Shown here one piece after another: positions 6,842 through 16,561 of a stretch of DNA of 64,000 nt. The position numbers and the translations under genes are program-made. The stretch is from an uncultured Tateyamaria sp. (GTDB taxonomy: Bacteria; Pseudomonadota; Alphaproteobacteria; Rhodobacterales; Rhodobacteraceae): contig NZ_CANMEU010000006.1 in the NCBI RefSeq assembly GCF_947497045.1, positions 124,001 to 188,000 on the forward strand. Reading direction: 5' to 3'. Each line of letters starts with the position of its first letter. Within the stretch, counting starts at the first letter, position 1. The notes under the pieces are model-generated. The model made no database searches. It saw only the letters and a list, made by a program, of their open reading frames with translations, and was not told the origin of the DNA.

Positions 6842-6846
6842 CCAGG
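6842..6846. repeat. Target-site duplication CCAGG, first copy
   Basis: Five bases immediately outside the prophage end TGTAGCGG. The same five bases flank the other end at 16107-16111. Mu-family transposition makes 5-bp target duplications, so the match in both length and position supports the exact borders. Confidence 0.85.
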
Positions 6847-6895
6847 TGTAGCGGCGCACTTGAGTTGGCAAAATGGCTCACTTGATTTGTCAGGA
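6847..6895 (+). repeat. Right prophage end with two transposase-site repeats
   Basis: The end reads inward TGTAGCGGCGCACTTGAG, strikingly like the Mu right end, which starts TGAAGCGGCGCAC. Two 21-bp repeats stand one base apart at 6853-6873 and 6875-6895. Reverse-complemented they fit TTGCCAWYTCAWGTGMKCC, the same motif as three repeats at the other end. Close packing of R1 and R2 is also the Mu arrangement. The chimeric tail gene ends 24 bases further in. Confidence 0.85.
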
Positions 6896-6919
6896 AAATT
6901 TTTCCCGTAAATTGGCCCT

Positions 6920-8617
6920 CTAGCGGTCAAGAACTGACACGTACTCGCCTTGGGGTTTCTTCGACTTGGGTGCCTGTTTATCTGACTTGTCATCGGCCTC
7001 TTCTTCTTGACCGAACTCTGCTTCTACGGTCGTCTTCGCGCCGCCTTCCTCACCATAGTCCCACAAGTGCGTCACTGTCGAGGCCACCCATGACCCGTCG
7101 ACATCCGGGGCCACGTTTGTGATGTTCAGCGGTGCCTCGGCACGCGCGTGTGGGTCGCCAATCAGCTCGAGGGTCAGCTCGCCTTCGCCAGCCCGCAATT
7201 CCTTCACGCGTGCGTCCGCCGCCTTCCGCGCATCCTCGCGATCCTGATAGACCTCTCGAAGCGTCATCGAAGGGCCTTTTTCAGCCGCTTTAACGGTCAC
7301 GCGCTTGGTCGTTCCACTGCCCCGATCCTGCCAGTTCGCGATCACCTTGGAATAGCGCGAGCGCGGCTTCAGCTCCGGGTTGGCTTGCGTCCACGCGTTC
7401 ACCTGTTCAACAAATCCGCGTGCGTTGGTCATCAGATCGGTGAAGATCGGCAAGAGCGCACCCGCCGGACCCAGCATGGCCGTCACGCTGTCGCGCAACA
7501 GCTTCCACTGCGCATTGAACCCCTGCAACACCCGCTCGGCGTCTGCATCCAGCGTCCCGTCGGCACCCATCGCCTTGTCCCGGATGCGCTGGTACTCTTC
7601 AAGGTTCGGAATGGCCGCGCGCAGGAAGTCCAGCACTTGTTTGTCTGCGAACAGCTCGCCCATCTTGAACGCGTCGCCACCGGTCATCTTCTCGATCACC
7701 ATCAGCATGTGTTCGAGCGGATCGGTGCCTCGCTCGAGCGCGATCTTCAGCTCCTTCTCGATATCGGTCCCGGCGTCCTTGAACTTCTTGACCGTGTCAG
7801 GGGCCGTGATCTTGCCCATGAAGTTGGTCAGGTTCGTCGCCGCCTGATCCTCCGAGCCTGCCGCTTTCATGGCCACCTGAAGCGCAGCCGCCAAGGACGC
7901 AACGGCGTCCACTCCATCCATCTTGAGCGACTTCGCGCCCGCCGTGATTTCAGGAAACTTGCGCGCCATCGCGGCCAGCTCGAACGACCCTTCCTTGCCC
8001 GAGACGGCCATGACATCGAAGGCCTTCTTCAGCCGATCCGGTGCCACTTCGAGGTTGTCCATGATCGAAAAGCCGGAACTGGCCATCTCGTTCATCATTG
8101 ATTTGGTGGCCACAGCCGCGATGCCCGTTGCCTCAATCGAGGCCAGCGCCTCGTCGAGGCCCAAACCCTTGCCCACGTAGGCCGAAAGCCCGTCGAGCAG
8201 TTCGACCTTGCCCTTGCCAGTCTTGCGCCGCAGATCATCCAGTTGCTGGTCCAGCGCCGCGACCCGATCGCCGCTGATCTCCGCCAGAATGGCGAAGTCG
8301 ATCATCTTCTCTTCGAAGTTGCCCGCCACGATCACGGGGGCGGCAAGGGTTGCGGCCATCGCGGCCGCGCCCATCAGGCGACCACGCGCCTGACTGATCC
8401 GCTGTTCGCTGCGCTCGATGGCCTCCGCGATCGACACGAAGTAATCCAGCACCGTCTCATTGTTCGCGGGCCGGTCCTGAAGGTCAGGCGCGAGAGAGCC
8501 GACGGATCGCCGCTCGATCCGCGTCCCAACGCGGGCCGTGAACAGCACACCAAGTGACTGAGCGATATGCGCCCAGCCGTCGATGCGCTGTCCGGTGCGG
8601 CGATCCATCCCGGCCAT
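6920..8617 (-). pseudogene. Chimeric tail ORF: baseplate gpW + tape measure + gpD
   Basis: A 565-codon open frame built from parts of three tail genes. Residues 1 to about 68 (MAGMDRRTGQRIDGWAHIAQ ... NNETVLDYFVSIAEAIE) are the N-terminal half of a GPW/gp25 baseplate wedge protein. About 69-416 (ARGRLMGAAAMAATLAAP, then SKEGSFEL-type repeats, ALERGTDPLEHMLMVI, AMLGPAGALLPIFTDLM) are the core of a tape measure protein, without its own N- and C-termini. About 417-565 (RSRYSKVIANWQDR ... LTLELIGDPHARAEAPLNIT) are the C-terminus of a late-control gpD baseplate hub protein. In related phages many genes separate these three. Two in-frame deletions are the simplest explanation. A functional product is unlikely, but the frame has no stop. 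Confidence 0.85.
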
Positions 8618-8621
8618 GGCT

Positions 8622-8849
8622 TTACTTGTCGCTCTTCTTGCCTGGGCCCTGGTCTTTGGACGTCACCGTGGGTGCCTTTGTGGCGCTGCCCTTCAGGCGG
8701 ATCGGCGAGGGCACGAGATACTTCGCTTGCGCGTCCGTCTTGTGAACAGTGTCGCCCACGGCGCGCAGATGGTTCCCGTCCCAGAACTCGGAGACGACCT
8801 CATAGGCCTTCGGCGTGTCCTGATCTTTTCCAGTTGGTTTTTTCGTCAT
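8622..8849 (-). CDS. Small phage tail-region protein, unknown
   Basis: 75 residues, highly charged, ending in a Lys/Asp-rich tail (KDQGPGKKSDK). The middle (AYEVVSEFWDGNHLRAVGDTV) resembles small proteins between gpV and gpW in Mu/P2-like tail operons, but I do not recognise a named family. It lies four bases upstream of the chimeric tail ORF and 11 bases after gpV, so it keeps its original operon place. Confidence 0.6.
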   Translation of the reverse strand: MTKKPTGKDQDTPKAYEVVSEFWDGNHLRAVGDTVHKTDAQAKYLVPSPIRLKGSATKAPTVTSKDQGPGKKSDK

Positions 8850-8860
8850 GGTCTTGTCCT

Positions 8861-9397
8861 TCAGTTGGGTACTTTGGTGTCGTCAGGGCCTTTGGAGATG
8901 CCGCCATGCGTGTGCGTTGCACCCACGTCCTTGCCGTCATGGGTGATATCGCCGCCGGTTACGGTGATGCCGGATCCGGTCAGCTCGACGGTCACGCCAC
9001 CGAGCACCACCACAGCCGATGCGCCCTTGAGCGTGATCGTGAGGCCGCCCAAGGTGAACACGGTCGCATCGCCATCCGCAGATGGTGCCGGGTTGGTGTC
9101 GGTGTAGCCGCCGCTGATCGCGAGCGACTTTTCGTCAAGATCACCCATGGGCGACATGACCGTCATCAGCGCGCCAACAGTCGGCGGGTTCCATGTCTTG
9201 GCCGCGCCGCCGGTGTCCGACCAGCGGATCCACGGCGAGACCAAGGGATTGTCGGCATCGCCCAGTTCGACCTTCACGCGCTGCGTTGCGGGATCGACGT
9301 CCACGACCTTGCCCGATCGCATGACATTGGCCTGTCGGCGCTCCAGCTCGACAATCTGGCGCTGCAGGCCAGCGATGATGGAAGGCAAACCGGACAT
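8861..9397 (-). CDS. Phage baseplate assembly protein V (tail spike)
   Basis: 178 residues. An N-terminal coiled segment (LQRQIVELERRQANVMR) leads into the OB-fold of gpV (GKVVDVDPATQRVKVELG, PWIRWSDTGGAAKTWNPPTVG, then AISGGYTDTNPAP). Next come repeated beta-strands of the needle (LTITLKGASAVVVLGGVTVE) and the metal-binding tip motif THTHGGI near the C-terminus. This protein forms the membrane-piercing spike of contractile tails. It looks complete. Its start overlaps the stop of the upstream gene. Confidence 0.85.
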   Translation of the reverse strand: MSGLPSIIAGLQRQIVELERRQANVMRSGKVVDVDPATQRVKVELGDADNPLVSPWIRWSDTGGAAKTWNPPTVGALMTVMSPMGDLDEKSLAISGGYTDTNPAPSADGDATVFTLGGLTITLKGASAVVVLGGVTVELTGSGITVTGGDITHDGKDVGATHTHGGISKGPDDTKVPN

Positions 9398-9930
9398 CAG
9401 TCATCCAACCCCGGTTCTTGGATCAGCTCGAAATGCTCGGTCAGCTCGCGCTCCGAATCCGGCACCGCTGCATCCAGCGAGGCGGTACCGGAGCCGACGC
9501 TCGCGCCGATCCGCATGGCCTGCGTCCAGGACACCGAAAAGATCGACACGCCTTTATCATCCACATCGCCCGAATACAGAGTGTCCAGGCGGATGCTATC
9601 GGGGATCCCGACACGCGCATGGCTGAAGCGGTTCAGCTCGACAACCTCGGCCACGAGTTCGGTCAGGTCCAGGCCCTCGATCGCGCGGTTGCGCCCTTCG
9701 GTCAGGATGAACACCGCAAAGGCGCAGCCGTACCGGCGGGACGTGTCAGCCAAAGGTGTCGTGCGCGGTGCGCCAAGGAACGCCACGCGCAGCGCAGGCC
9801 CCCGGAAACTCGTGCGGCCCAGCTCGCTTGCGTCGAACCGCCCAGGCGAGATTGCCACGTCACAGCACGGCGGCAGATCGGCGTCATTCAACGCGGCCTC
9901 GATGGCTTGAAGGTGGGCGGCCAGCGTCAT
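9397..9930 (-). CDS. Mu gp37-like (DUF1834) tail protein
   Basis: 177 residues. The layout MTLAAHLQAIEAALNDADLP, LRVAFLGAPRTTPLADTSRR, CAFAVFILTEGR, LTELVAEVVELNRF and SVSWTQAMRIG fits the gp37/DUF1834 family found before gpV in Mu-like phages, probably a tail-terminator or completion protein. It overlaps gpV by one base and its ATG overlaps the stop of the upstream fragment (ATGA). The frame looks complete. The family call rests on recall of typical members and is moderately sure. Confidence 0.6.
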   Translation of the reverse strand: MTLAAHLQAIEAALNDADLPPCCDVAISPGRFDASELGRTSFRGPALRVAFLGAPRTTPLADTSRRYGCAFAVFILTEGRNRAIEGLDLTELVAEVVELNRFSHARVGIPDSIRLDTLYSGDVDDKGVSIFSVSWTQAMRIGASVGSGTASLDAAVPDSERELTEHFELIQEPGLDD

Positions 9931-10168
9931 TGCAGCACCGCTTTCATGAAATCGCCGATCGCGCTCTCGATCTCGCGGGCGTTGTCGGTGCTGACACCCA
10001 TGTAGGGGCGCGCCGGAATGGTGACCTGTTTGGCAAACACGCTGTCGCCACCCGCCTTGAACGCCAGCGCCTTGGCCTTCTTGGGTTTGATGACGCCGCC
10101 AAAATGGTGGATGGCCGCGTAGCTCAGCGGTGAGCCAACGGTGATGGAGTTCAGATCATCGAGACCAC
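9927..10168 (-). pseudogene. 3' remnant of phage virion morphogenesis gene
   Basis: About 75 codons without a start, ending in TGA that overlaps the next ATG. The reading (VGSPLSYAAIHHFGGVIKP, KKAKALAF, then VTIPARPYMGVS and a helical end IESAIGDFMKAVLQ) matches the C-terminus of the gpG/gpS virion morphogenesis family, where AAIHQFGG and IPARPYLG are typical. A stop codon lies just upstream in this frame, so the 5' half is gone. It marks the right-hand side of a large deletion that begins after muB. Confidence 0.75.
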
Positions 10169-10267
10169 ATCAGCCACCGAAACACGCCGCTCGGCGCATA
10201 CGGTTCTGATGATGATCCCTATGATGCCGGAAAACCGCTGGCCATGATCCAAGTGCGGTTGCACTAG
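10151..10267. other. Deletion junction between muB and tail remnants
   Basis: About 110 bases join the muB stop to the virion-morphogenesis remnant. On the minus strand a 37-codon frame starts at a GTG overlapping the muB stop (10264) and ends at 10151. On the plus strand another frame ends at 10267 and reads LGAYGSDDDPYDAGKPLAMI, which looks protein-like. I cannot tell which is the relic. The genes for protease, capsid, portal and terminase would have stood here. Confidence 0.4.
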
Positions 10268-11286
10268 ACGATCCCCCCGCCACGGCGCTCGTAAGCGATC
10301 TTGATGTCGATCGGTTCCATGGGGCGGCCTTGCCCGCGCGCAATCATCGCGGCCAGTTTCATGGTCTCACCTAAGGCACGGAATGCACCGGGTTTGTTGC
10401 TGACCTTGCGGGCGGTCTCGCGCAGATCCTCGCGGTCGATCTGCCACGCGTCGAGGAAAGCCTCTACATCCTCCGGGAATGGCCGCATCACATTCACCCG
10501 GAAACCGATGCGCGACACCACCTGCGTCGAAGCATGGTTGATGTCCCGGCTGGCATAGGGCGTTGTCGTCTCGTCATTGCCGAGCAGGACGAGGCCGCAC
10601 TTGGCCTTGTCCCGGAAATACCGCAGCTCGTTGATGCTTTCCTCGGAGAGGTTCTGAGCCTCGTCGACAATCAGGAGGGCGCTGAAACCATCGCGCTTGA
10701 GCGCCGTGGTGATGCCGAGCTTGAGCGTCGCACCGTTCTTGGTGTCGAGGCCAAGCGCCGTACCGATCTCCGTCTTCATCGTGTGCGGGCTGCGGCTCGA
10801 AGGGCTGAGCGTGACGATGTAGACGTGCGGGTGCATCGCCTGAAACGCCTCGGCGGCTTCCGTCTTGCCCAGACCCGAGACGAGCGTGGCAATCGCCATG
10901 GTGGGCATCATCTGCGCGTAAGTGAAGGCCTCGAACAGTTCGCGTGCCACGCGGGTCTGCAGAAAGGCCGGCTCAACAGGCAGCGCAGAGCGGGCCTCAG
11001 TTTCGGTGCGAACCTGTGCGATCAGCTTTTCGACGGCTTTGGTCGTGGTGTCGTAACGGCCACCGTAGGTGCCGTCATACCAGCCCGAGAATGTACCAAT
11101 GGCCATGTCGGCCCGGCGTGCAACCTCGGATTTGTTCCACCCCTGCTGAGCCGCGAGAATGGCCACCGTCTTCGTGGCAACAGTCCAGCGCTCGGACAGA
11201 TTGGCGTCGCCCTTGAAGTCCGGCACGCTCTTTGGGCTTGAAAATACGCTGGCTTTGCTCGTGCCTTGATCTGATTTCCCGTTCAT
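10264..11286 (-). CDS. MuB-like AAA+ transposition target protein
   Basis: 340 residues. In Mu, MuB is an ATP-dependent DNA-binding protein that captures target DNA and activates the transposase. An N-terminal helix-turn-helix (ILAAQQGWNKSEVARRADMA, then GTFSGWYDG) precedes the AAA+ domain: Walker A SGLGKTEAA, Walker B ALLIVDEAQNLSEESINELR, sensor-like LVLLGNDETTTPYASRD and an arginine-rich lid. It follows the muA pseudogene by 43 bases, in Mu order. The frame is complete and no catalytic residue looks lost, in contrast to muA. Confidence 0.88.
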   Translation of the reverse strand: MNGKSDQGTSKASVFSSPKSVPDFKGDANLSERWTVATKTVAILAAQQGWNKSEVARRADMAIGTFSGWYDGTYGGRYDTTTKAVEKLIAQVRTETEARSALPVEPAFLQTRVARELFEAFTYAQMMPTMAIATLVSGLGKTEAAEAFQAMHPHVYIVTLSPSSRSPHTMKTEIGTALGLDTKNGATLKLGITTALKRDGFSALLIVDEAQNLSEESINELRYFRDKAKCGLVLLGNDETTTPYASRDINHASTQVVSRIGFRVNVMRPFPEDVEAFLDAWQIDREDLRETARKVSNKPGAFRALGETMKLAAMIARGQGRPMEPIDIKIAYERRGGGIV

Positions 11287-11329
11287 GGGATATTCCTTGT
11301 GTTAAGAGAGAGACTTTGAAGGGGGCGGT

Positions 11330-12785
11330 TTATCCGCCCTCTTTTTTTTGGCTCGGCGTGTCGAAGATGCTCGACACCCCAAGCGATGCGGCAAGACCGG
11401 AGCCGAAACCGTCATTCTCACTGTCCGTCGTGGTTCGGTGCTTGTCGGAAAACTCGAGACCAACCACCTTTGGCAGCGCCACGTCGATCGGTTCAGGGTC
11501 TGGGATCTGCGCGGCGACTTGTGCGGGCGTCAACTGGCGGGCAAGCCGTAGCATCTCGCGGTTCGCCTTCAGGAACTGGCGCTTCAGTTTGGCGTGTTCG
11601 CGGGCGGCACCGGCATCGTTGAAGCCCACGGCCTCGATGCACTCAGCGAAGTCGATGAACCGACCGTCGAGGGTGTAGACATAGACGCCGCCGTGCATGT
11701 TCTCGGGATCGAACCGGATCATCAGCTTGCGGCCTGCATGGGCGATCAAGTGTTCGCTCCAATAGCGGTTGCCCGCGAGGTGGATTTCGCCGTTGCCCTT
11801 GCGCGCCGTCTTGCCTTCACCAGCCAGCAGAAAGAACTGACGCTGCAGGGCCGAGGCCTTGCGCACCATCACGCCCGGCTTGTCGATGCTCTCCTGAAAC
11901 ACCTCATGGAAACTGCGGCCTTTGGCAGTTTGGGTGTTCCTGTCCTTACGGGTGTTGTGACGCATGATTTCATGCGCAACAAACTTCCGGAATTCGTCGA
12001 TCGGGATAGCGCGGGCGCGGTAGTTCTCGGGCTTGGCGTCGATCGTGTTGCCGGTGAACGCGCCGTCCATCTTGGGGTGACGTGAAATGCGATCAACCAT
12101 GTCGCGCCACGCCCGTTCGATTGGCTTGGCCTGCCCATGATAGGGGGTGGTGTTATGAACCTCGACGCCGAGCTGTGTCAGCACCCCGCGCGGTTCCTCT
12201 TCTTTGATCTTGAAGCGGAAGCGATGCTTCATGCCGCCGCCGGTGATCCACTTCGACATGAACGCGCGACCGTTGTCGAAATAGACATGCTCGGGGAAGC
12301 CAATCGCTCTTGTGCAGGCCGCGCACTTCGCCGAGCCACCGGTAGAGCGTGCGCTGCGGAACTTTCGATGAAATCTCGACCAAGGTCAGGGCGACCATGT
12401 CAGGCTTGCTCTCGCGCAGCTTGGCGATCTGCTGCACCAGCTTGAGGCGCTTGTCAGCTTCGGTGCGCGATCCCTCGGGGGCCGTCTGGAAGCGATGCCA
12501 GAGGCTTTCCGATACCAACTCCGCGCGCTGATCGCGTTCCTGGGCGGTGACCTCGTCGATCATGGCGTTGGTGACGAGTTCAGCCTGAAGGAAGTGAGGC
12601 AGCAGGGTGTAGTGGTATTCTTTGCGCACACCGCGTTGTCCACCGCCGCCTGCGACCTCACGTGATCGGTTTTTGTCAGCGTCCCAATGGTTGTCGCGGG
12701 CCGTCCTGCGCAGCGACTTCTCACTGCCGGGCAGGCTGGCGTGGCGCAGCGCGACGAGGTCAGAAATCGAATACCACTCTTTCAT
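11330..12785 (-). pseudogene. Mu-type transposase A, internally deleted and frameshifted
   Basis: The 5' frame (from 12785) encodes the MuA DNA-binding domain: MKEWYSISDLVALRHASLPG, SEKSLRRTARDNHWDADK, then LTLVEISSKVPQRTLYRWLG and the HKSDWLP linker. At about 12293-12303 the protein-like sense jumps to another frame reading GFPEHVYFDNGRAFMSKWI, which continues to 11330 through HGQAKPIERAWRDMV and a complete C-terminal region. The second Asp and the Glu of the DDE triad remain, but the first Asp and about 130 codons are gone. A TGGCTTCCC-like stretch at the joint would suit a microhomology deletion. The product would be an inactive DNA-binding fragment. Confidence 0.88.
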
Positions 12786-13582
12786 TGATCGCTCGCAATC
12801 CGGGCCAAGAATTCGTCCCGCCAGGCCTTCTTGCCTTCGCCCCAGTGTGCGATCTGCTTTTCCATCCAGGCAGCTTTCGCACCCAAGGGCTTAGCGGGTT
12901 CGTCGAGGTCGCCGATTGCGATGCGCCAGTCCTTCACCGAGCCATAGCGACCTTCCGCAATGTCGTCGGCGCAGCGCTCGATCTGCATGGGATCGTCCAG
13001 CTTTGCGATCGCCTTGAGCTGGACCATGTTGTCCGCGATGCTCGAGCGTGAAAGGCTTCGCAGGGCGTCGACACCGAGCGTCTTAAACAGAGCGATATCG
13101 TCTGCGTTACTGCGACCAGAGCGCCCTGTTTTGCGCTCCATGATCTCGCGGTAGGAAACATGTGGCAAAGTTTGCCGCTTGCTGTCCTGATCACTGCTTT
13201 TGCGGTCACCTCCATGCGCATATTCCGGGTTTTTGGCCCGAAAGGCTTCATCCCAAATGCCCATCGAAATGGCACGCTCCGCTGCCGTCAACTCCCTGCG
13301 CAACAGGTTCTCTTCGACCTCGACCAAGTCGGCCTCGTCGTCGTCGAGATCACGAACAGCGGCGCGGATTGCGTCCCGTCCCAAAAGCTCGTGGGCGCGC
13401 AACCGGTGTGCGCCAGCGACAAGATCAAAACGCCCGACTTCTGTTGGACGTACGACAATGGCTTGGTGCAGGCCGTTCTCTTCGATCGAGAGCGCGTACT
13501 CTTCTGCACGATGCTCGTTGACGTCGCGAAGCCGCACACCGATGTCGATCAGCTCAATGGAAACGAACTGCTCTTCAGTCAT
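12782..13582 (-). CDS. ParB-like nuclease domain protein of the phage early operon
   Basis: 266 residues. The N-terminal ParB/Srx domain is clear: VSIELIDIGVRLRDVNEHRA, ENGLHQAIVVRPTEVGR, VAGAHRLRAHELLGRD and VEENLLRRELTAAERA. A second helical part (SLSRSSIADNMVQLKAIAKL) follows. ParB-like genes sit just before muA in several Mu-like phages of Rhodobacteraceae. The stop overlaps the muA start (ATGA). The role is not established; DNA binding or nicking during transposition is inference. Confidence 0.82.
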   Translation of the reverse strand: MTEEQFVSIELIDIGVRLRDVNEHRAEEYALSIEENGLHQAIVVRPTEVGRFDLVAGAHRLRAHELLGRDAIRAAVRDLDDDEADLVEVEENLLRRELTAAERAISMGIWDEAFRAKNPEYAHGGDRKSSDQDSKRQTLPHVSYREIMERKTGRSGRSNADDIALFKTLGVDALRSLSRSSIADNMVQLKAIAKLDDPMQIERCADDIAEGRYGSVKDWRIAIGDLDEPAKPLGAKAAWMEKQIAHWGEGKKAWRDEFLARIASDQ

Positions 13583-13662
13583 TGGGCGTCACCCCCGGCG
13601 TCGCTTCCGATCTGTAATTGAGCGCGAGCACGCTCACCGAACGATTTACGATCAAAAGTCAC
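13579..13662 (-). CDS. 27-residue micro-ORF in the phage early operon
   Basis: A GTG-started frame, VTFDRKSFGERARAQLQIG and seven more residues, fills the gap between two early genes. Its GTG overlaps the upstream stop (GTGA) and its TGA overlaps the ParB-gene ATG (ATGA). Perfect coupling on both sides supports translation. No function can be given; it may only carry ribosomes from one gene to the next. Confidence 0.45.
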   Translation of the reverse strand: MTFDRKSFGERARAQLQIGSDAGGDAQ

Positions 13663-13967
13663 CCGAAAATCTCCCCGATCCAAAGCAACCCAAACAGGAG
13701 CACAAAGAGGCTCAGCGCGCCGATAATGTCGCCGACCCAGACCCACGCGGCGTGGCGCACGATACGGCTCACACGGTCTCGTATCGACGGGCGGGAGGAG
13801 GTGCCCGCCGATACGGTCGCGCGGCCTTTCGGCGTCTCCGCGAGTGGAGCTGACGTTGTGACAAAAGTGTCCGGGAGCCGAACAGAACCTCCGGACAAGG
13901 TGGCCCGACTAGCGGCTGAGCCGCGAGGCGTGGTCGGGCGATCTGGAATGATCTCTGTGGGCATCAT
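13659..13967 (-). CDS. Small single-pass membrane protein of the phage early operon
   Basis: 102 residues: a long Ser/Thr/Pro-rich N-terminal part (PTTPRGSAASRATLSGGSVR) and one C-terminal membrane span (WVWVGDIIGALSLFVLLFGL). The ATG at 13967 overlaps the stop of the Ner-like gene. The N-terminal part is low in complexity. No family recognised; a superinfection or lysis-inhibition role would be guesswork. Confidence 0.6.
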   Translation of the reverse strand: MMPTEIIPDRPTTPRGSAASRATLSGGSVRLPDTFVTTSAPLAETPKGRATVSAGTSSRPSIRDRVSRIVRHAAWVWVGDIIGALSLFVLLFGLLWIGEIFG

Positions 13968-14239
13968 GCGGCCCACCGGTTGAACTCTTCGGCCTGCTGC
14001 AAAAGGCGATAGGAATACAGCGACAGAACAACATCGCGACCGGCGTCATCAATCAGCTTGTCGAGGGTCTTCTTGCTGCGCGGTCCGGCGTTCAAACCGT
14101 AGGTGTAGGTACGAACTGTCGTGGAACTGATACCACGATCCTTGCACCACTCCTCAAGTTTGATGCCGCGCCCTTTGAGAGCGCCCATGATGGCCTGGTG
14201 TAGCCATTCGCCTGCTGCAGGATCGGGTGTTCGTTTCAT
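13964..14239 (-). CDS. Ner-like phage DNA-binding protein
   Basis: 91 residues. It is the first early gene, divergent from the repressor gene, the place held by ner in Mu. The centre reads ALKGRGIKLEEWCKDRGISS, then TTVRTYTYGLNAGPRSKKTL, which fits a helix-turn-helix of the Ner type. Ner proteins turn down both early and repressor transcription. The tail (SLYSYRLLQQAEEFNRWAA) is longer than in Mu Ner, so this is a loose homologue at best. Confidence 0.6.
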   Translation of the reverse strand: MKRTPDPAAGEWLHQAIMGALKGRGIKLEEWCKDRGISSTTVRTYTYGLNAGPRSKKTLDKLIDDAGRDVVLSLYSYRLLQQAEEFNRWAA

Positions 14240-14256
14240 AGCTCGCCTCAGATGTA

Positions 14257-14298
14257 TGCGTTATGCCGTTGCCTCAACTAACGGCATTTCTGCGTTAT
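14257..14298. promoter_or_regulatory. Divergent phage operator region
   Basis: Between the Ner-like gene and the repressor gene. An 8-bp inverted repeat ATGCCGTT / AACGGCAT spans 14263-14287 with a 9-base centre, and TGCGTTAT occurs twice as a direct repeat (14257-14264 and 14291-14298). This arrangement suits overlapping operators for a repressor and a Ner-like protein. Which protein binds which site is not visible. Confidence 0.65.
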
Positions 14299-14390
14299 AT
14301 TGAGTGCACATGTCAACTGCTTTTCTGCGCTGCGCTGCCTGTCTAATTTTTGAGGTTTCCGAATCGCGGTTTGTCTGTCACGTCTTGGCG

Positions 14391-15038
14391 ATGCTTGGGA
14401 CTGGTCAAAGAATGCGCGCGGCGATCGAAGCGCGCGGTTTTAGCGAAGCGGCAATTTCTGCTAGGCTAGGCGTCCACAAGAGCACCTTTAACAATTGGCT
14501 CAACGACCGATCCGAACCAAAGTTCGCCACTTTGCTGTCCTTCTGCGAGATCGTCGGAGTGGACATTGGCAGCATCATCAAGCGTGACACCGACAGCCCT
14601 GTGAACCTTCATATCGACGCGGCAGATACCCGGTATGCCGAGATCGAATGCTACCCTTTTCCCGATGCGGATACGCCCGACATTCCCATTCAAGACCCGC
14701 CCGTGGCTTTCCTTTTGGAGTGGCTGAACCGTTCCGGCATCGACCCTGCCCACGCCTCCATAATTCAGGTCGCCGATGATGAGATGAAGCCTACCTTCAG
14801 CGAGGGCGATTTAGTCCTAGTCGACCACCGCAGCAACCGGACCGAAAGCAAGCGCGATGTCTATGCCGTGCGCGAAGGCGACCGGATCATTCTGCGCCGC
14901 CTGGAATACAACTTGGATGGCAAGATACTTGTGATGCACTCGGATCGCCATGACGTCCCATCGACGTTCGCATGGCGTGGGGAGCAAGGCCATTACCGCG
15001 TGATTGGTCGTGTCGTTTGGCTCGGGCGAAAACTGTAG
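14391..15038 (+). CDS. cI/S24-type phage repressor with altered catalytic residues
   Basis: About 215 residues. An N-terminal helix-turn-helix (RMRAAIEARGFSEAAISARL, GVHKSTFNNWLND) joins a C-terminal S24/LexA-like domain (VADDEMKPTFSEGDLVLVDH, DVYAVREGDRIILRRLEYNL). In self-cleaving members the motif is D-S-M-x-P and V-K-R-L. Here Ser is Glu (DEM) and Lys is Arg (LRRL), so autocleavage is not expected. The start is uncertain: 14391 gives the HTH at the normal distance, while GTG 14304 adds 29 unrelated residues. Encoded opposite to the early operon, as the Mu c gene is. Confidence 0.82.
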   Translation: MLGTGQRMRAAIEARGFSEAAISARLGVHKSTFNNWLNDRSEPKFATLLSFCEIVGVDIGSIIKRDTDSPVNLHIDAADTRYAEIECYPFPDADTPDIPIQDPPVAFLLEWLNRSGIDPAHASIIQVADDEMKPTFSEGDLVLVDHRSNRTESKRDVYAVREGDRIILRRLEYNLDGKILVMHSDRHDVPSTFAWRGEQGHYRVIGRVVWLGRKL

Positions 15039-15039
15039 G

Positions 15040-15159
15040 TACGACAGCGATAACTCGAATGTACCCACAGAACACGCCCAACCAGACGTCACCGCTGAGT
15101 TCGAAATCATCGGCGAGGTGGTGTGGTCTAACCGGGCGTGTCAGAATATTGGATACTGA
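15040..15159 (+). pseudogene. Leftover C-terminal tail of a second repressor gene
   Basis: Starting at the repressor stop but one frame over, 39 codons read YDSDNSNVPTEHAQPDVT, then AEFEIIGEVVWSNRA and a stop at 15157-15159. This lines up with the tail of the repressor just before it (HSDRHDVPSTFAW ... HYRVIGRVVWLGR): spacing is the same and IG-VVW, SD and VP are shared. No start codon or domain precedes it. Most likely it is the 3' scar of a replaced repressor gene or a partial tandem duplication. Confidence 0.65.
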
Positions 15160-15190
15160 TGCAAAATAACGATTTTGGAAGGATCAAACC

Positions 15191-15652
15191 ATGACCAAAA
15201 CCAGTCGAAGTTTACTAGCGGCCTGCTTTGCCCTGGGCGCGATTTCAGTGACGACCACAGGGGCATCCGCAGCAAACATGAACGTCGATTTTGAAGGTTG
15301 CGGAACTGGTAAACTCGCGCTGGTTTCGTCCGAGATTTCAGCCGCCACTCTGTCCGATGGAGAGTTCTTAGTGACGCTTAAAAACGTCTCACCTGATGAC
15401 GTCCACGGCGCGCTCATGCGCTTCAAGGTGACGGCCGGTGACCGCCCCACTCCGATCGCAATGGGCGTTGCTGGAAATCCGGCCTTTTTCTTCGGTGGAT
15501 TAAAGCCCGGCGAACAGATCAGCGTCGCGATCTACCATTTCATGGGCGAGCGCGAACTCGGTTTTGCTCTGGAAGCTGAAGAGGTAAGCGCCACGTTTCA
15601 GGTCGATCATTTCTTTACAGCAGATCGTGAGCTTGTGCCGTGCGGTCAGTAG
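15191..15652 (+). CDS. Secreted small protein, candidate prophage cargo gene
   Basis: 153 residues with a good signal peptide (MTKTSRSLLAACFALGAIS, cleaved near ASA-ANM). The mature part is a predicted beta-rich domain with two cysteines (FEGCGTGKLALVSS near the start and VPCGQ at the end), which could form a disulfide. GGAAGGA stands 10 bases before the ATG. It sits between the repressor and the left prophage end, where Mu-like phages often carry morons. No family recognised; a role in host surface or stress physiology is only suggested by export. Confidence 0.75.
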   Translation: MTKTSRSLLAACFALGAISVTTTGASAANMNVDFEGCGTGKLALVSSEISAATLSDGEFLVTLKNVSPDDVHGALMRFKVTAGDRPTPIAMGVAGNPAFFFGGLKPGEQISVAIYHFMGERELGFALEAEEVSATFQVDHFFTADRELVPCGQ

Positions 15653-15923
15653 AATTTTGCATCGGGCGAACTGATACGGTCCGCCCTGCCCAATGCGTGA
15701 AAAAGTGCCGCTACTTCCAAACGAAAGGTGCGCACCTCACTGTCCCCGATCATGCCTATATACTTGAGCGAACGTTCGGTCTCTGCGTTACCAAGGGAGT
15801 AGGGACACATCGCCGGAACTTCTCGACTTCAGGCTTTCAACGCCGCAGCTATCTTGAGGCGCTCTCCACCCTTTATTCACTGGCTTTTGAAAGCCTTTCG
15901 AAAGCCGTTCGTCGGTGCGCGCA

Positions 15924-16106
15924 CTTCGCCAATTCAAATGCGCCACAACAGCCTCGCCGCTCTTCTTTGCCATTTCATGTGAACCGCCGTTGTTCTCGCT
16001 CTGTCGATCGTCGCGCGTGCATCGGCCTTTTTTCTATGGCGTTCAGCGGATCCCGGCCTTACCCACCTCTACCCGCCTCTTTTGCCATCTCATGTGATCC
16101 ATAACA
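15924..16106 (-). repeat. Left prophage end with three transposase-site repeats
   Basis: Read inward from 16106 the end is TGTTATGGATCACATGAG, close to the Mu left end (TGTATTGATTCACTTGAA). Three 21-bp repeats fit TTGCCAWYTCAWGTGMKCC on the plus strand: L1 16080-16100, L2 15965-15985, L3 15924-15944. L1 stands far from L2 while L2 and L3 are close, the same pattern as Mu attL. The two repeats at the other end are in opposite orientation. Confidence 0.85.
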
Positions 16107-16111
16107 CCAGG
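16107..16111. repeat. Target-site duplication CCAGG, second copy
   Basis: Follows directly on the prophage end (ATAACA then CCAGG) and matches 6842-6846. Removing the prophage and one copy gives a continuous host sequence ...GGCTGGCCAGGTATTCC... Confidence 0.85.
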
Positions 16112-16235
16112 TATTCCTGGGCAGCTGCAATAGGAAAGTCAGCTTAGAGCCCATATTGCCATATGCTGCCACATCTACCAATGTCGGCTCCATGTTGTTG
16201 TTTCTGGAGATTCGTCGGCTCGCGCAGGTGCGCAA

Positions 16236-16490
16236 ATGAACGAGTACCAAGGCGTAATTCTGCTGGGAGCCATAGTAGTTGGATTCTTGCCTGTTACGAT
16301 CATGATCGTTTTTTGCCTGTTAACAGGACGGACAACGGCGCTCTTTTCACATAAGAAAGCAGAACAGGTCGAAGATTCACCATTTCTTAGACTTATGGGG
16401 CGCCTAAGCCTTATTCTGTTTCCCGCTTACATTGTATTACTTCTCCTCTATGCGTTCCTTAACTTGAGTGGAGCTGGATCAGGCGAGTAG
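16236..16490 (+). CDS. Small two-span membrane protein
   Basis: 84 residues with two hydrophobic spans (VILLGAIVVGFLPVTIMIVF and LSLILFPAYIVLLLLYAFL) joined by a basic loop containing HKKAEQVED. A weak ribosome site (GCAGGTG) precedes the ATG. It lies in host DNA just outside the prophage and runs convergent to prs. Base composition is AT-richer than the neighbours. No family recognised. Confidence 0.55.
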   Translation: MNEYQGVILLGAIVVGFLPVTIMIVFCLLTGRTTALFSHKKAEQVEDSPFLRLMGRLSLILFPAYIVLLLLYAFLNLSGAGSGE

Positions 16491-16561
16491 GGTTGCGATG
16501 TGAACCAAAGCAGTCATCGGCGCAATCGCAGCGAACTTCCGCAAAGTCCGCACCTGACCTC

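What the first reader, a model, noticed from the sequence alone, without database searches (positions are those of the whole stretch)
6842..16111. Exact borders of a shrunken Mu-like prophage
Seen: both ends start 5'-TGT, the same CCAGG stands outside each, and five 21-bp repeats (three left, two right, inverted) share TTGCCAWYTCAWGTGMKCC. The ends resemble Mu's own (TGTATTGATTCAC left, TGAAGCGGCGCAC right, from memory). Known: Mu transposition duplicates 5 bp. The element keeps all cis sites and muB but only 9.26 kb, so it could still be mobilised by a related phage supplying MuA. A non-autonomous, MITE-like Mu derivative of this size with intact ends is unusual.
Basis: partly seen in the sequence, partly recalled or inferred. 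Interest (0 to 1): 0.75.

Follow-up and report, generated by a model that had tools for sequence, protein, structure and literature searches.

The report
Mu-like prophage shrunk by internal deletions
A Mu-type jumping phage inserted here and lost about three quarters of its genome from the inside, including a working transposase, while its two ends stayed intact; it looks like a well-preserved fossil of a known kind rather than a new type of mobile element.

Summary
The borders are real. The element is window 6847-16106 (9,260 bp), TGT...ACA, between two CCAGG copies. Five MuA-type end sites lie at offsets 6 and 28 (tail end) and 6, 121 and 162 (repressor end), as in an intact 37.5-kb relative in Cognatishimia sp. 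MH4019 that has its own 5-bp duplication. Against it, four internal deletions (about 5.0, 6.2, 16.8 and 0.5 kb) explain the shrinkage: three tail genes are fused, the stretch from MuB to gp36 is gone, and MuA is broken and lacks its first catalytic Asp. MuB, ParB-like, Ner-like and repressor frames stay open. Nothing shows that it moves: single copy; right-end pattern in 3 of 394 family genomes, once each; absent from 19 sister genomes; no second MuA-family match in its genome. Borders and Mu kinship are confirmed; the MITE-like, mobilisable reading is allowed by the intact ends but unsupported. The empty site could not be tested at base level. Verdict: a recently inactivated, deleted transposable prophage; new member of a known kind, modest interest.

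The parts
6842..6846 (.). target-site duplication, left copy (CCAGG)
   Evidence: sequence; same layout in four relatives with other 5-mers
16107..16111 (.). target-site duplication, right copy (CCAGG)
   Evidence: sequence
6847..16106 (.). whole element, TGT...ACA, 9,260 bp
   Evidence: termini match those of the intact relatives
6852..6893 (+). end sites R1 (6852) and R2 (6874), offsets 6 and 28 from the tail-gene end
15926..16101 (-). end sites L3 (15926), L2 (15967), L1 (16082), offsets 162, 121 and 6 from the repressor end
6920..8617 (-). 565-aa fused tail ORF: baseplate wedge gp25 N-part, then tape-measure part (about residues 56-409 of the G124 protein), then gpD/hub C-part (residues 218-370)
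7369..7370 (.). deletion junction J1 (tape measure | gpD), in frame, about 5.0 kb missing relative to G124
8396..8431 (.). zone of deletion junction J2 (gp25 | tape measure), in frame, about 6.2 kb missing
8622..8849 (-). 75-aa ORF, no Pfam or PHROG family; 34% to a 67-aa ORF in the same place in G115
8861..9397 (-). baseplate assembly protein V (Phage_base_V, over cut-off)
9397..9930 (-). Mu gp37-like protein (Pfam 22.9 bits, cut-off 25; 53% to the G124 protein)
9930..10154 (-). C-terminal piece (residues 85-159) of the neighbouring G124 gene, gp36-like by position
10155..10263 (.). deletion junction J3, about 16.8 kb missing; about 110 bp of remnant DNA that I could not place with confidence
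10264..11286 (-). MuB transposition protein, full length (340 aa, 62% to G124)
11330..12259 (-). MuA C-terminal piece (part of the catalytic core plus C-terminal domains)
12153..12785 (-). MuA N-terminal piece (residues 1-164), in another frame, with an out-of-frame tail
12294..12301 (.). deletion junction J4 inside muA, about 0.5 kb missing, out of frame
12782..13582 (-). ParB-like protein of the early region, divergent (40% to G124)
13964..14239 (-). Ner-like early regulator by position (55% to the G124 gene; family match weak, E 0.006)
14304..15038 (+). c-type repressor, HTH plus S24 peptidase-like domain
15191..15652 (+). 153-aa protein, signal-peptide-like N-terminus by eye, possible cargo; no Pfam or PHROG family; 36% over about 95 aa to a gene near the opposite end of the G124 prophage

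Best explanation
A complete Mu-like transposable phage inserted by MuA/MuB-type transposition between an amino-acid-transporter gene and prs, duplicating CCAGG. After insertion (inferred) it lost about 28 kb through four internal deletions, as in illegitimate recombination; at two joints about 4 bp of shared sequence is possible, judged by eye. The stretch from MuB to the gp36-like gene, which by position holds the head, middle and lysis genes, is gone; the tail genes are fused; and MuA has lost most of its end-binding region and its first catalytic aspartate and is split between frames. The element should therefore neither transpose by itself nor make particles. The repressor, Ner-like, ParB-like and MuB frames and all five end sites remain. 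The most likely present role is none, or only passive immunity from the repressor. Shown: borders, end geometry, deletions relative to relatives, broken MuA. Inferred: that the deletions followed the insertion, and that the element is inert.
For: Ends and 5-bp duplications: the window and four relatives (G124 GTCGG, G115 ACCGG, G316 GTAGA, G413 GCGGG) show TGT...ACA with a matching 5-mer. End-site offsets are the same as in G124 and G412 and within 2 bp of G115. Colinear blastn and protein maps against full-length relatives define the junctions; at J1 the relatives agree within 3 bp. The intact G124 MuA aligns to Mu MuA (4fcy, E 1.2e-88); the missing segment 165-326 covers most of the end-binding domain and the Mu D269 equivalent (residue role recalled). 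One DDE_2 match and one MuB match in the genome. Inactivation looks recent: the MuA C-piece differs at 8 of 117 columns invariant in the three relatives, against 7 of 116 for intact G115 and 4 of 113 for G124. Element found in 1 of 20 genus genomes, its own.
Against: No site-by-site empty allele was found. The order 'inserted whole, then deleted' is not demonstrated. The retained frames are open, and 2 of the 3 joints inside genes are in frame, which could hint at selection but is not unlikely by chance. In the relative-rate comparison the window has more unique changes than G124 in all 6 proteins compared, so some relaxed constraint is possible.
Confidence: 0.85

Rival explanations
1. A natural mini-Mu: the deleted form arose elsewhere and was carried here by a related phage that supplied MuA in trans and packaged it, and it may still be mobilisable.
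For: All five end sites with conserved geometry and termini, MuB intact, intact 5-bp duplication. A second, more degraded Mu-like remnant in the same genome (C1 about 507.6-510.2 kb; 348 bp of gpD 97% identical) shows that relatives infect this lineage. Engineered mini-Mu and mini-D3112 elements are established tools (PMC2837660, PMC5977238; passages seen).
Against: One copy. Right-end pattern in 3 of 394 genomes, once each, the other two on large prophages. 0 of 19 sister genomes carry it. MuA-junction pattern absent from viral contigs. No resident helper seen: no second DDE_2 or MuB match; the 10 rve-family matches elsewhere in the genome were not examined one by one.
Confidence: 0.08
2. A domesticated immunity locus: the repressor, perhaps with MuB and the MuA C-terminal piece, is kept by selection because it blocks superinfection by related transposable phages.
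For: Repressor, Ner-like, ParB-like and MuB frames are open. MuA C-terminal domains act on MuB in Mu (recalled).
Against: Selection after the deletions could not be separated from earlier phage evolution. The tail fusion, with no evident use, is equally open. PADLOC gives only weak matches: TnsC for MuB, RmrA for the repressor, and a cas-cluster model for a 105-aa ORF at 13659-13976. Found in one species of 20 searched in the genus.
Confidence: 0.06
3. Assembly artefact: the deletions are misassemblies.
For: Draft genome in 54 contigs; no reads were available.
Against: Four separate joins, and no second MuB or MuA-family match among the other contigs.
Confidence: 0.01

Closest known systems
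Mu-like prophages of Rhodobacterales: Cognatishimia sp. MH4019 (G124), MAG DOLJORAL78_60_29 (G115), Aliiroseovarius crassostreae CV919-312 (G413), Paenihalocynthiibacter styelae MYP1-1 (G316)
   Same: Colinear retained genes (64-77% DNA identity to G124 in the blastn pieces), TGT...ACA termini, 5-bp duplications; same or nearly the same end-site offsets in G124 and G115, two of five sites in G413
   Different: They are 34.9-38.5 kb; whole MuA seen in G124, G115 and G316, not checked for G413; the window element is 9.26 kb; G316 shows no end sites with my matrix
Escherichia phage Mu
   Same: c - ner - A - B early order, TGT/TGA termini, MuA (4fcy) and MuB homologues, 5-bp duplication
   Different: ParB-like gene between Ner-like gene and muA; tail gene order differs (V and gp25 before the tape measure, gpD last); early and late functions lost here
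RcapMu (Rhodobacter)
   Same: Rhodobacterales transposable phage with TGTAG termini, ParB-like gene and annotated att repeats
   Different: Different end-repeat sequence and different tail genes
Engineered mini-Mu / Mud / mini-D3112
   Same: Mu-type ends kept, interior removed; a 10-kb Mud is described in PMC2837660 (passage)
   Different: Man-made; movement is not shown here

Membership tests
Transposable (Mu-like) prophage | TGT...ACA termini with a 5-bp target duplication | tested here: met
   the 5-bp rule was also seen in a passage of PMC8705779
Transposable (Mu-like) prophage | several MuA-type binding sites at both ends in conserved geometry | tested here: met
   (sequence only, no binding assay)
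Transposable (Mu-like) prophage | MuA DDE transposase, intact | tested here: not met
   present by homology in two pieces (DDE_2, Mu-transpos_C) but broken; so a defective member
Transposable (Mu-like) prophage | MuB ATPase | tested here: met
   Phage-MuB_C and AAA_22 over cut-off
Transposable (Mu-like) prophage | genome length about 36-39 kb | tested here: not met
   9,260 bp; length range from a passage of PMC8705779; so a deleted member, not an intact one
MITE-like non-autonomous transposable element | several copies sharing the same internal deletion at different sites | tested here: not met
   single copy in own genome; 0 of 19 sisters; right end in 3 of 394 genomes, once each
MITE-like non-autonomous transposable element | moves with transposase supplied in trans | not testable with these tools
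   needs an experiment
Phage satellite (PICI/P4 type) | own integrase or replication module and helper-interference genes | tested here: not met
   recognised genes are a subset of the parent phage; the proteins of 8622-8849, 13659-13976 and 15191-15652 match no PHROG family, so an unknown function there is possible

The most novel reading that the evidence does not exclude
A naturally occurring mini-Mu satellite: a 9.3-kb deletion derivative that keeps ends, MuB and repressor and is carried between genomes by related transposable phages supplying MuA and capsids.
Probability: 0.08. Interest if true: 0.6.

Novelty: new member of a known kind. Interest (0 to 1): 0.3.

Why it matters
It gives base-exact borders and a deletion map for a transposable prophage of a Rhodobacterales group that I did not find described in the paper searches made, and shows the group's end-site geometry (6, 28 / 6, 121, 162). 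If a strain with the same junctions at another site were found, it would be the first natural mini-Mu known to me (recall, plus those searches).

Tried and rejected
Empty-site test: each flank matches in 18 of 19 sister genomes. By my reading of the coordinates the two flank matches lie 0.6-1.2 kb apart in 14 of those 18; in the other four they are 4 kb, 17 kb or 247 kb apart or on different contigs. Left-flank matches stop 33-143 bp short of the insertion and right-flank matches begin about 440-460 bp beyond it (13 left-flank loci rechecked), so the single CCAGG could not be seen. Single-protein MuB scans found no relative (genome contigs, viral contigs). The MuA alignment A1 found 76 genome loci, and 169 viral loci of which 80 were listed; only L114, L116 and L189 were followed, plus the three already known. 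L112, an exact 20-base match to junction J1, is unrelated DNA. G412 has both end types but on two contigs with unequal 5-mers, so it was not counted as a duplication. The rve search of the own genome gave 10 matches, 8 over cut-off, not examined further. The idea that in-frame joints show selection was dropped: too few joints. Papers: listings and starts of abstracts only, except passages of PMC5488378, PMC8705779, PMC2837660 and PMC5977238; none was read whole.
Full report
Borders. CCAGG stands at 6842-6846 and 16107-16111; TGT begins at 6847 and ACA ends at 16106. The element is 9,260 bp. The given interval includes both duplications.

Kinship. Searching 394 genomes of the family with the element gave matches at E <= 0.001 in 56, most of them short; strong colinear matches were in G124 and G115, weaker ones in G316. 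Their prophages run TGT...ACA over 37,496, 38,453 and 34,930 bp with GTCGG, ACCGG and GTAGA on both sides (lengths for G115 and G316 computed from its positions). A fourth, in Aliiroseovarius crassostreae (G413), runs 36,271 bp with GCGGG. A fifth (G412) has both end types on two contigs with unequal 5-mers. So a matching duplication is seen in the window and in 4 of 5 relatives examined.

End sites. A 20-bp matrix finds sites at offsets 6 and 28 (tail end) and 6, 121 and 162 (repressor end) in the window and in G124, and 6, 28 / 6, 123, 164 in G115. Six of those of G124 and G115 and three of the window were seeds; the inner L2 and L3 sites were not. G412, not a seed, gives the same offsets as the window; G413 shows 28 and 162 above threshold, the rest below (offsets by my arithmetic). 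G316 shows no end sites with this matrix. In the 64-kb window no other site scores above 13. I compared only the first bases of the ends with Mu.

Gene content and deletions. Pfam and PHROGs identify a fused tail ORF, baseplate V, a gp37-like protein (just under its Pfam cut-off), MuB, MuA pieces, a ParB-like protein and an S24-type repressor. Mapping G124 proteins on the window gives four joints: tape measure residue 409 directly to gpD residue 218 (7370|7369, in frame); gp25 to tape measure around 8396-8431 (in frame); the gene beside gp37 cut at its residue 85, then MuB (10155-10263); and MuA residue 164 to 327 (12294-12301, out of frame). G115 and G316 agree where their genes were recognised (my ORF picking missed MuB and gpD of G115). 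J1 and J4 are compatible with about 4 bp of shared sequence, judged by eye from relatives, since the parental sequence is unknown. The sizes 5.0, 6.2, 16.8 and 0.5 kb are my arithmetic coordinates; they sum to 28.5 kb, which fits 37.5 against 9.3 kb. That the 16.8-kb loss holds head, middle and lysis genes rests on position and on matches to C1; I ran families on only four G124 phage proteins of known role.

MuA is dead. The intact G124 MuA aligns along Mu MuA (PDB 4fcy). The missing segment contains the equivalents of most of the end-binding domain and of Mu D269 (catalytic role recalled); those of D336 and E392 lie in the retained part.

Age. The MuA C-piece departs from otherwise invariant columns 8 of 117 times, intact G115 7 of 116 and G124 4 of 113: no excess over G115. 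Against this, the window shows more unique changes than G124 in all six proteins compared; the ParB-like protein is an outlier (81 against 19), possibly a divergent allele.

A second remnant. C1:507633-507980 of the same genome is 97% identical to the gpD 3' piece. Beside it lie a MuF-like minor-head gene (58% over 407 residues; the stretch holds one stop) and pieces of two further G124 head-region genes. Of 116 codons compared, 12 differ: 7 synonymous, 1 stop-to-stop, 4 changing, one of which is a stop in the C1 copy. So related phages entered this lineage at least twice.

Mobility. The 19-bp motif at 0-2 mismatches occurs only in this element. The right-end pattern, up to 3 mismatches, occurs in 3 of 394 genomes, once each: the window, G124 and G115. 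It did not find G316, whose right end differs, and G412 and G413 were not in that set, so divergent ends would be missed. None of 19 sister genomes has element DNA. There is one MuB and one MuA-family match in the genome. A 30-base pattern over the MuA joint has no match in viral contigs. The intact ends would allow trans-mobilisation in principle; nothing shows that it happens.

Conclusion. A transposable prophage of a known kind, recently inactivated by internal deletions, with unusually clean borders.

Noticed in passing
L048:2195-3441 (G115:C9:47195-48441): The related G115 Mu-like prophage carries, towards its repressor-side end, an autoinducer synthase (LuxI type, PF00765, E 2e-15) next to a LuxR-type regulator (PF03472): quorum-sensing cargo in a transposable prophage.
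   Followed up: partly
L011:17633-20000 and L012:1-178 (G000:C1:507633-510178): Second, more decayed Mu-like remnant in the same genome, with a candidate right end of another type (TATAGCGGGTCAAAA...) just outside gpD, judged by eye.
   Followed up: partly
G000:C1:507500-507562: A roughly 56-bp GC-rich palindrome-like sequence beside that remnant recurs at least twice in 17 of 19 sister genomes and in this genome (7 own-genome matches to a 20-base core at up to 2 mismatches).
   Followed up: partly
window 15191-15652: Possible secreted cargo protein without known family; the only relative found (36% over about 95 aa) sits near the opposite end of the G124 prophage.
   Followed up: partly
window 16107-16555: The right flank with a small ORF (16236-16490) did not match at this place in the sisters; G005 has similar DNA (73%) on another contig (C32), so this intergenic spot may have taken other insertions.
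   Followed up: no
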